Below are positions 42,795-44,273 of a stretch of DNA of 64,000 bases, one piece after another. Every line of letters begins with the position of its first letter. Position 1 is the stretch's first letter. Under the pieces are notes generated by a model that ran no database searches, was not told the origin of the DNA, and worked only from the letters and a program-made list of their open reading frames with translations. Made by a program: the position numbers and the translations under genes. The DNA comes from Cyanobium sp. PCC 7001 (GTDB taxonomy: Bacteria; Cyanobacteriota; Cyanobacteriia; PCC-6307; Cyanobiaceae). The stretch spans positions 62,001-126,000 of the forward strand of contig NZ_DS990556.1 of the NCBI RefSeq assembly GCF_000155635.1, in the 5' to 3' direction.

Positions 42795-43305
42795 ATGACC
42801 CCTGCCCCGGTTTCGTTCCCTGGTCAAACGGCTGTTTGACGACGTCAACTACCTCTATGTGATCGATCGCGCCGAACAGCAGCTCGCCAAGCTGCTGGGC
42901 CTGGTGCTGGTGGTGGTGATGGCGGCCGCCACCTGTCAGTTGATCTGGCAGGTGGTTCTGGCGCTGAGCGTTCCGGAGACGCCGTGGCTCGGCGACAAGC
43001 TCAACCGGGTGCTGGGTGATCTGCTCAACCTGCTCATTGCGGTGGAGGTGCTGCAGAACATCACCTCCTATCTGCGCCGTCATGTGGTGCAGATCGAGCT
43101 GGTGCTGCTCACGGCGATGACCGCCGTGGCCCGGAAGGTGATCGTGCTGCCGGCCGGTGCCGAGAGCAAGCCCCAGTTGCTGGCGGGCCTGGGCGTTGCG
43201 GTGCTGGCCCTGGCCGCGGCCTACTGGCTGGTGCGGTCCCTCACCCTGCGGAAGCCTCCTGAAAGAACAGGGCCAGCCATACGGATCCGGGGGCGGGGTC
43301 AGTAG
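42795..43305 (+). CDS. PsiE-like phosphate-starvation-inducible membrane protein, start region frame-shifted
   Basis: From the GTG at 42859 the frame gives 148 residues with four membrane helices: GLVLVVVMAAATCQLIWQVVLAL, LLNLLIAVEVLQNITSYL, VVQIELVLLTAMTAVARKVIVLP and LGVAVLALAAAYWLV, as in PsiE proteins. Good coding sequence runs further upstream in the same frame (FRSLVKRLFDDVNYLYVIDRAEQQ) but meets a stop at 42796-42798 with no standard start. The ATG at 42795 lies in another frame; removing one C from the CCCC run at about 42804-42808 would join them. So a single-base insertion or a non-canonical start is likely. Confidence 0.7.
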
Positions 43306-43783
43306 CCACCACCCGGTGGCGCCGGTGCGGAGCGATCAGAACGCTGTCACCAGGGCCCAGGCTGCGGGGCACCTCCTCATCGGCGAACTGGAGCAGGGCC
43401 GATCCCTGCAGCAGGGTCACCCATTCGCTCTCCGGCTGGTCGTACCACTGACCGGGGGGTGTGGAGGCCGTGCAGGAATGGATCCGTTCCAGTCTCCAGC
43501 CCTCGCCCTGGACCAGCACCTCGGTGCATTCCTGGCCTTCGGGAGGGCAGGGACCACGCAGCAGGTTGGAGCCGGCGGGCAACGGAGCCCGCTGCTCCCC
43601 CCAGCGCCGACCGATCTCGAAGCCACAGTCGCGGGCCAGGGCCACCACCTCGTGGTGATGGGAGCAGTCCCTCAGAGCGTCACGCAGGGCCGGGTCCGCC
43701 TCGGTGAGCGCCACGAAGGCATTCAGCTGGCGCACTTTCTGGAGAAATTGCTGCAGTTGGGCTTCAGCCACGGCTGGGGTCAC
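43241..43783 (-). CDS. Nif11-domain and cupin fusion protein
   Basis: 180 residues. Residues 5-62 (AEAQLQQFLQKVRQLNAF... ALRDCSHHHEVVALARDCGFEIG) follow the Nif11 leader-peptide domain: helix, then xVVALAxxxGFxI. Residues 65-175 form a cupin with EGWRLERIHSCTASTPPG and SEWVTLLQGSALLQFADEEVPRSLGPGDSVLIAPHRRHRVV. There is no double-Gly cleavage site, so this is not a peptide precursor. The function is unknown. It overlaps the acetyltransferase gene by 20 bases and is convergent with the PsiE-like gene (65 bases overlap). Confidence 0.82.
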   Translation of the reverse strand: MTPAVAEAQLQQFLQKVRQLNAFVALTEADPALRDALRDCSHHHEVVALARDCGFEIGRRWGEQRAPLPAGSNLLRGPCPPEGQECTEVLVQGEGWRLERIHSCTASTPPGQWYDQPESEWVTLLQGSALLQFADEEVPRSLGPGDSVLIAPHRRHRVVATDPAPGSVWLALFFQEASAG

Positions 43784-44273
43784 CGCCAGCAGGCAGGAGA
43801 GACAGGGGCTTGATCATCCGCCACCGGAGGAACTGTTCGCCCCCGAGTTCCACGTTTTCCTCCGCCTCCATGGTCCAGCCCCGCCGGAGCAGCAACGGCC
43901 TCGAGAGCTGGCTGGCTTCGGTGCGCAGTTGGGGAACGCCAGCAGCGCGGGCGTGGGCTTCCAGCCGCTCCAGAATGGCCGTGGCGTGCCCCTGCCGGCA
44001 GGCTGAACCCCGGCAGTAGAGCAGAGCGAGGCGATCGGAGGGATGGAGGATGCCGAATGCTTCCAGGCAGGACGGATTGCCCTCCCTGTGGATGCCCAGG
44101 CCGTAGCCCGCCGCCAGGCAGCGGGCGATCACATTGCTGCGCTGGGCATGGCCTGACCAGGCCGCAATCTGAAGGGGTGTGTAGAGGTCAACGGCCTGGG
44201 TCGACACCGCGTCCTGATACACCGCCAGCAATTGATTCAGATCCCTGGCTTCCAGGATGCGCAAGCGGTTCAT
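43764..44273 (-). CDS. GNAT-family N-acetyltransferase
   Basis: 169 residues. The acetyl-CoA site is the weak variant YCRGSACRQGHATAILERLEAHARAAGVPQLRTEAS, matching motif A (RxxGxG/A) and the following helix. N-terminal RILEARDLNQLLAVYQDAV is the typical GNAT start. The target is unknown. It overlaps the Nif11-cupin start, so the two are likely co-expressed. Confidence 0.82.
   Translation of the reverse strand: MNRLRILEARDLNQLLAVYQDAVSTQAVDLYTPLQIAAWSGHAQRSNVIARCLAAGYGLGIHREGNPSCLEAFGILHPSDRLALLYCRGSACRQGHATAILERLEAHARAAGVPQLRTEASQLSRPLLLRRGWTMEAEENVELGGEQFLRWRMIKPLSLLPAGGDPSRG

What the first reader, a model, noticed from the sequence alone, without database searches (positions are those of the whole stretch)
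43241..43783. Nif11-type leader domain fused to a cupin
Nif11 domains normally lead peptide natural products. Here the domain lacks a processing site and is joined to a sensing or enzyme-type cupin and overlaps a GNAT gene. This may be a recruited recognition domain or an enzyme acting on Nif11-type peptides.
Basis: partly seen in the sequence, partly recalled or inferred. Interest (0 to 1): 0.65.

Follow-up and report, generated by a model that had tools for sequence, protein, structure and literature searches.

The report
Known Nif11-cupin fusion protein, non-RiPP
The gene encodes an ordinary, already catalogued cyanobacterial protein made of a small helical Nif11 domain joined to a cupin barrel; it is not a peptide-antibiotic precursor, and its most interesting aspect is that many Prochlorococcus genomes have dropped the cupin but kept the Nif11 half as a 60-residue protein.

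Summary
The minus-strand ORF 43783..43241 has a Nif11 domain (PF07862, E 2.6e-11, residues 7-61) followed by a cupin (PF07883). The whole protein matches an existing curated family, NCBIfam TIGR03890 "nif11_cupin" (228.8 bits, cut-off 159), so the fusion is already known. The protein lacks the leader C-terminal half and double-Gly site, and its genome has no LanM. Of 126 sampled genomes with the fusion, 108 lack LanM. The gene sits in a fixed slot among ordinary genes. The GNAT neighbour is present at only 12 of 21 loci. Comparative genomics gives three architectures: a cupin alone in other cyanobacteria, the fusion in Synechococcus/Cyanobium and some Prochlorococcus, and Nif11 alone (about 60 aa, ending at GFEIGRRWGE) in most small-genome Prochlorococcus. 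One Nif11-only gene sits in the fusion's own chromosomal slot. No genome in the fully listed sample has both. I read the Nif11 part as a stand-alone, non-RiPP interaction module joined to an ancestral small cupin with a Gln-Glu-His triad instead of the usual His-x-His metal site. Function is inferred, not shown. The cupin-free form is the part worth following.

The parts
   Evidence: TIGR03890 E 3e-68; orthologues start MAEAQLQQF
43601..43765 (-). Nif11 domain, residues 7-61 (180-aa numbering), predicted three helices
   Evidence: PF07862 2.6e-11; AlphaFold2: helices 3-25, 27-34, 39-48 in 176-aa numbering
43595..43612 (-). GRRWGE motif (residues 58-63) that closes the Nif11 part in fusions and is the C-terminus of the Nif11-only proteins
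   Evidence: G-R-R-W-G invariant in A2
43568..43594 (-). short variable linker, residues 64-72
   Evidence: gapped, variable; pLDDT falls to 67
43262..43567 (-). cupin unit, residues 73-174, homologous over its length to cupin-only proteins of other cyanobacteria and to PDB 2OPK
   Evidence: 2opk TM 0.89 by target; 5e-33
43424..43447 (-). altered cupin motif 1, WYDQPESE (residues 113-120): Y114 and Q116 where classical cupins have His-x-His; E120 kept; H156 in motif 2 kept
   Evidence: Q and E invariant in 49 fusions and 20 cupin-only proteins; first His position is Y/M/Q/C/L
43764..44273 (-). upstream co-directional GNAT-like acetyltransferase, stop codon overlapping the GTG start (GTGGCTGA)
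   Evidence: weak GNAT matches; present in 12 of 21 fusion loci
42859..43305 (+). PsiE-like membrane protein, convergent, 3' ends overlapping by 65 bp
   Evidence: PF06146 1.3e-29; found near the fusion in 19 of 21 loci

Best explanation
This is the Cyanobiaceae Nif11-cupin protein (TIGR03890): a vertically inherited, unprocessed protein, presumably cytosolic, with no link to RiPP biosynthesis. Shown: a distinctive three-helix Nif11 domain (extra residues before the 'H..VV.LA..WGFEIGRRWGE' core, no leader C-terminal half, no GG) is joined by a short variable linker to an entire ancestral single-domain cupin whose His-x-His metal motif is replaced by (Y/M)-x-Q, leaving an invariant Q-E-H triad. 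Shown: the cupin occurs alone in other cyanobacterial families, and the Nif11 domain occurs alone, ending at GRRWGE, in small-genome Prochlorococcus. Inferred: the Nif11 domain is a protein-binding module, with the GRRWGE segment as the likely contact, whose own function is retained without the cupin. Inferred: the cupin is a small-molecule-binding or weakly catalytic barrel that the fusion ties to the Nif11 partner.
For: Family. Three architectures and taxonomy. In the fully listed, 21 genomes have the fusion, 15 have Nif11 only, and none has both. A Nif11-only gene (L056, Prochlorococcus sp. AG-409-J16) lies in the fusion's own slot with no cupin remnant found in the 130 bp before the next gene. 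Nif11-only proteins match TIGR03890 at about 1e-17 to 1e-26, against about 1e-2 to 1e-5 for the leader model, and group with the fusions against other Nif11 proteins at 99/97 support. Purifying selection: median dN/dS 0.29 for Nif11-only; 0.24 (Nif11 half) and 0.35 (cupin half) in fusions. Cupin fold and metal-motif loss. No RiPP link.
Against: No ligand, partner or phenotype is known. Neighbours of the Nif11-only genes differ between clades (Pcb antenna, fibrillin, fatty-acid desaturase), so context gives no function. The 58-column tree cannot fix the direction: holding the fusions, or the Nif11-only proteins, as one clade is not rejected (AU p 0.66 and 0.73). The order fusion-then-cupin-loss rests on taxonomy and on the L056 slot. 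Fold search with the Nif11 model found nothing.
Confidence: 0.6

Rival explanations
1. An enzyme or adaptor that acts on Nif11-type RiPP peptides, the fused Nif11 domain serving as mimic or docking module.
For: Nif11 leaders serve as RiPP precursor leaders (PMC2887384). A 2023 survey listed a 'Nif11 domain/cupin' locus among putative RiPP clusters (PMC10783134).
Against: 108 of 126 fusion genomes lack LanM, including this one. No maturase is in the conserved neighbourhood. The four other Nif11 ORFs of this genome show no GG site plus Cys/Ser/Thr core in their translations. The cupin exists without Nif11 in other cyanobacteria.
Confidence: 0.07
2. Two functionally unlinked domains: an accidental fusion of a small cupin and a Nif11 protein, each doing its own job.
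For: Each half occurs alone in related lineages; the linker is short and variable; pTM of the two-domain model is only 0.64.
Against: The fusion is retained in 126 of 250 sampled genomes of the order, across many genera, with both halves under constraint.
Confidence: 0.25
3. The Nif11-only Prochlorococcus proteins are separate paralogues, not the fusion gene minus its cupin.
For: Most lie at different genome positions in each clade; the short tree does not settle direction.
Against: L056 is in the fusion's slot. Shared insert and GRRWG motif, and a much stronger match to TIGR03890 than to the leader model. No genome carries both forms.
Confidence: 0.1
4. A RiPP precursor whose 'core' is the C-terminal part.
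For: The protein just exceeds the TIGR03798 cut-off (33.3 vs 32.3 bits), so automatic annotation could call it a precursor.
Against: The C-terminal part is a folded, conserved cupin; the profile's GG half is missing.
Confidence: 0.01

Closest known systems
NCBIfam TIGR03890 nif11_cupin (hypothetical equivalog)
   Same: Whole-length match 6-174 at 3e-68, both domains in the same order
   Different: Nothing; this is an ordinary member. The cupin-free Prochlorococcus form scores below the model's cut-off
NCBIfam TIGR03798 Nif11-like leader / prochlorosin precursors
   Same: Shares the N-terminal helical Nif11 core (33.3 bits)
   Different: Lacks profile positions 44-68 with the double-Gly site, has an insert in the domain and a cupin in place of a core peptide
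Single-domain cupins of the 2OPK kind (Reut_A1446, 'putative mannose-6-phosphate isomerase')
   Same: Same barrel, 36% identity, rmsd 1.4 A, same lack of His-x-His
   Different: No Nif11 domain; 2OPK has S where the cyanobacterial family has an invariant Q
Unk10 of the CA4 chromatic-acclimation island (PMC3877281)
   Same: A Nif11-domain protein whose described context is the chromatic-acclimation/phycobilisome region, not a RiPP cluster
   Different: 107-118 aa, no cupin reported

Membership tests
TIGR03890 nif11_cupin | Score above the curated cut-off over the full profile | tested here: met
   228.8 bits vs 159.45, profile 1-171/171
TIGR03890 nif11_cupin | Nif11 then cupin in one chain | tested here: met
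   PF07862 7-61, PF07883 116-167, both above gathering
Nif11-type RiPP precursor (TIGR03798) | Score above the curated cut-off | tested here: met
   33.3 vs 32.3 bits, barely
Nif11-type RiPP precursor (TIGR03798) | Leader C-terminal half with double-Gly cleavage site (motif ELSDEELEAVAGG in PMC2887384) | tested here: not met
   only profile 3-43 of 68; sequence reads GFEIGRRWGEQRAPLP instead
Nif11-type RiPP precursor (TIGR03798) | Short core peptide plus modifying enzyme nearby or in genome | tested here: not met
   C-terminus is a cupin; no PF13575 in the genome. Maturases other than LanM were not searched genome-wide
Classical metal cupin (3His/1Glu) | His-x-His...Glu in motif 1 and His in motif 2 | tested here: not met
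   first His is Y/M/Q/C/L, second is invariant Q; Glu and motif-2 His kept. Metal binding itself not tested
2OPK-like single-domain cupin family | Full-length sequence and fold similarity | tested here: met

The most novel reading that the evidence does not exclude
Prochlorococcus keeps a 60-residue, cupin-free Nif11 protein, descended from the Nif11-cupin fusion, as a free-standing non-RiPP protein; the Nif11 fold therefore has a conserved cellular function of its own in very small phototroph genomes, and is not merely a leader peptide.
Probability: 0.65. Interest if true: 0.5.

Novelty: already known. Interest (0 to 1): 0.3.

Why it matters
The fusion is catalogued, so finding it here changes little. 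The comparison does give a clean natural experiment on the open question of what Nif11 domains do outside RiPP pathways: one lineage has the cupin only, one the fusion, one the Nif11 domain only. In streamlined Prochlorococcus genomes the Nif11 half is the one kept. It also warns that automatic RiPP mining can call such proteins precursors: this one passes the TIGR03798 cut-off, and a 2023 survey placed a Nif11/cupin locus among putative RiPP clusters.

Tried and rejected
RiPP function: looked for LanM in 250 genomes, conserved maturases beside the gene, and GG/core features; rejected. GNAT partnership as part of the system: rejected as general, 12 of 21 loci. Neighbour-based function for the cupin-only and Nif11-only genes: no gene conserved across clades. 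NtcA (GTAN8TAC) box: none in the 200 bp upstream of 39 genes. Fold search for the Nif11 domain: no match. Phage carriage: none. Tree direction from 58 columns: not resolvable. No paper found for TIGR03890 or Reut_A1446.

Full report
Observation. The ORF at 43783..43241 (-) encodes 180 residues. Pfam gives Nif11 at residues 7-61 (2.6e-11) and Cupin_2 at 116-167 (8.7e-7). NCBIfam gives a whole-length match to TIGR03890, 'Nif11 domain/cupin domain-containing protein', 3e-68, 228.8 bits against a cut-off of 159. Orthologues begin MAEAQLQQF, so the GTG at 43771 is the likelier start; it overlaps the stop of the upstream GNAT ORF in the 8-bp string GTGGCTGA.

Not a leader. The leader model TIGR03798 aligns only to positions 3-43 of 68. 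In place of the ELSDEELEAVAGG part of leaders (PMC2887384) the protein reads GFEIGRRWGE. Compared with other Nif11 proteins of the same genomes the domain carries an insert before that core: 55-57 residues for 45-47 profile positions. LanM (PF13575) is absent here and present in only 19 of 250 genomes of the order; 108 of the 126 genomes with the fusion have none. LanM-positive genomes are nearly all fusion-positive (18 of 19, Fisher p 4e-5), but LanM is confined to larger genomes and a few genera, so I read this as shared phylogeny. The other four Nif11 ORFs of this genome show no double-Gly site followed by a Cys/Ser/Thr core, although they also pass the TIGR03798 cut-off.

Context. Across 20 further fusion loci the neighbourhood is largely stable: DUF1232 protein, sigma factor and PsiE-like protein on one side of the fusion, cytochrome c, YCII and AbrB-like genes on the other, with trpA, DUF3007 and ndhL further on. 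PsiE is found near the fusion in 19 of 21 loci; GNAT is upstream in 12 of 21. Nothing suggests a biosynthetic cluster, although a 2023 survey listed a Nif11 domain/cupin locus among putative RiPP clusters (PMC10783134).

Three architectures. Outside Cyanobiaceae, TIGR03890 matches only its cupin half, in free-standing proteins of about 102-127 aa, most of which begin with NLF.LP-like sequence and correspond to residue 73 onward of the fusion. In Synechococcus, Cyanobium and some Prochlorococcus (MIT 0701 among them) the fusion is found; 126 of 250 sampled genomes score above cut-off. In most small-genome Prochlorococcus there is only a protein of about 60 aa ending at GRRWGE. About 100 further genomes of the order have best E-values between 6e-26 and 7e-12, and all those whose matches were listed cover only the first 60-73 profile positions. 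All 15 cupin-free loci among the named records come from records titled Prochlorococcus. In the fully listed phylum sample, 21 genomes have the fusion, 15 the Nif11-only form and none both.

Descent. Nif11-only proteins match TIGR03890 at about 1e-17 to 1e-26 and the leader model only at about 1e-2 to 1e-5. Fusion and Nif11-only domains group together against other Nif11 proteins (99/97). In L056 (Prochlorococcus sp. AG-409-J16) the 61-aa gene occupies exactly the fusion's slot, and only about 130 bp without recognisable cupin separate it from the next gene. The other Nif11-only genes lie elsewhere. A 58-column tree cannot prove the direction: neither monophyly constraint is rejected. That the cupin was lost rests on taxonomy and on L056. 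The Nif11-only genes are under purifying selection (median dN/dS 0.29; mostly 0.1-0.3 among close pairs), as are both halves of the fusion (0.24 and 0.35); many of these pairs have high dS, so the medians are rough.

Cupin. The AlphaFold2 model (mean pLDDT 93, pTM 0.64) shows three helices, a less certain linker and a barrel. The nearest solved structure is 2OPK, 36% identical, rmsd 1.4 A (profile E 5e-33); no paper on it was found. The two motif-1 histidines of metal cupins are replaced by a variable residue (mostly Y or M) and an invariant Q; E and the motif-2 H are kept. A classical metal enzyme is therefore unlikely, but metal binding was not tested.

Mechanism. My reading is that the Nif11 domain is a protein-binding module with the GRRWGE segment as the likely contact, and that the fusion ties a ligand-binding cupin to that partner. 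Sequence, distribution and constraint are shown; binding, ligand and partner are inferred. The Nif11 half being the one kept in streamlined genomes argues that it carries a function of its own.

Verdict. Ordinary member of a known family; the cupin-free Prochlorococcus form is the part that I did not find described and that would be worth an experiment.

Noticed in passing
L098-L106, L108, L110: A second conserved non-prochlorosin Nif11 family in Cyanobiaceae (STADDVAQIALKLGYEFSGDELLRFSGKKVGRVTV.K.D.PG); genome G047 (1.7 Mb) has just this one and the GRRWG protein. A family of this description (-D/ELL, -GEYH/N-) is mentioned with unknown function in PMC10783134.
   Followed up: partly
L001, L003, L004, L005: The four other Nif11 ORFs of this genome pass the TIGR03798 RiPP-precursor cut-off although none shows a double-Gly site with a core; automatic annotation would over-call precursors.
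   Followed up: partly
L058 (7871-8062) and L059 (7902-8087): In two Prochlorococcus-like genomes the Nif11-only gene lies next to genes of one cluster, a PSII/Pcb-type chlorophyll-binding antenna protein (the L059 copy is PF00421); L058 has one on each side.
   Followed up: no
L094, L095 (own genome C1:1624089, C1:1612142): Two C39-peptidase matches in the genome, one in a 721-aa frame and one with an internal stop; their cargo is unknown.
   Followed up: no
L180: A contig labelled Bifidobacterium breve MAG carries the picocyanobacterial gene; probably a mislabelled or contaminated bin.
   Followed up: no
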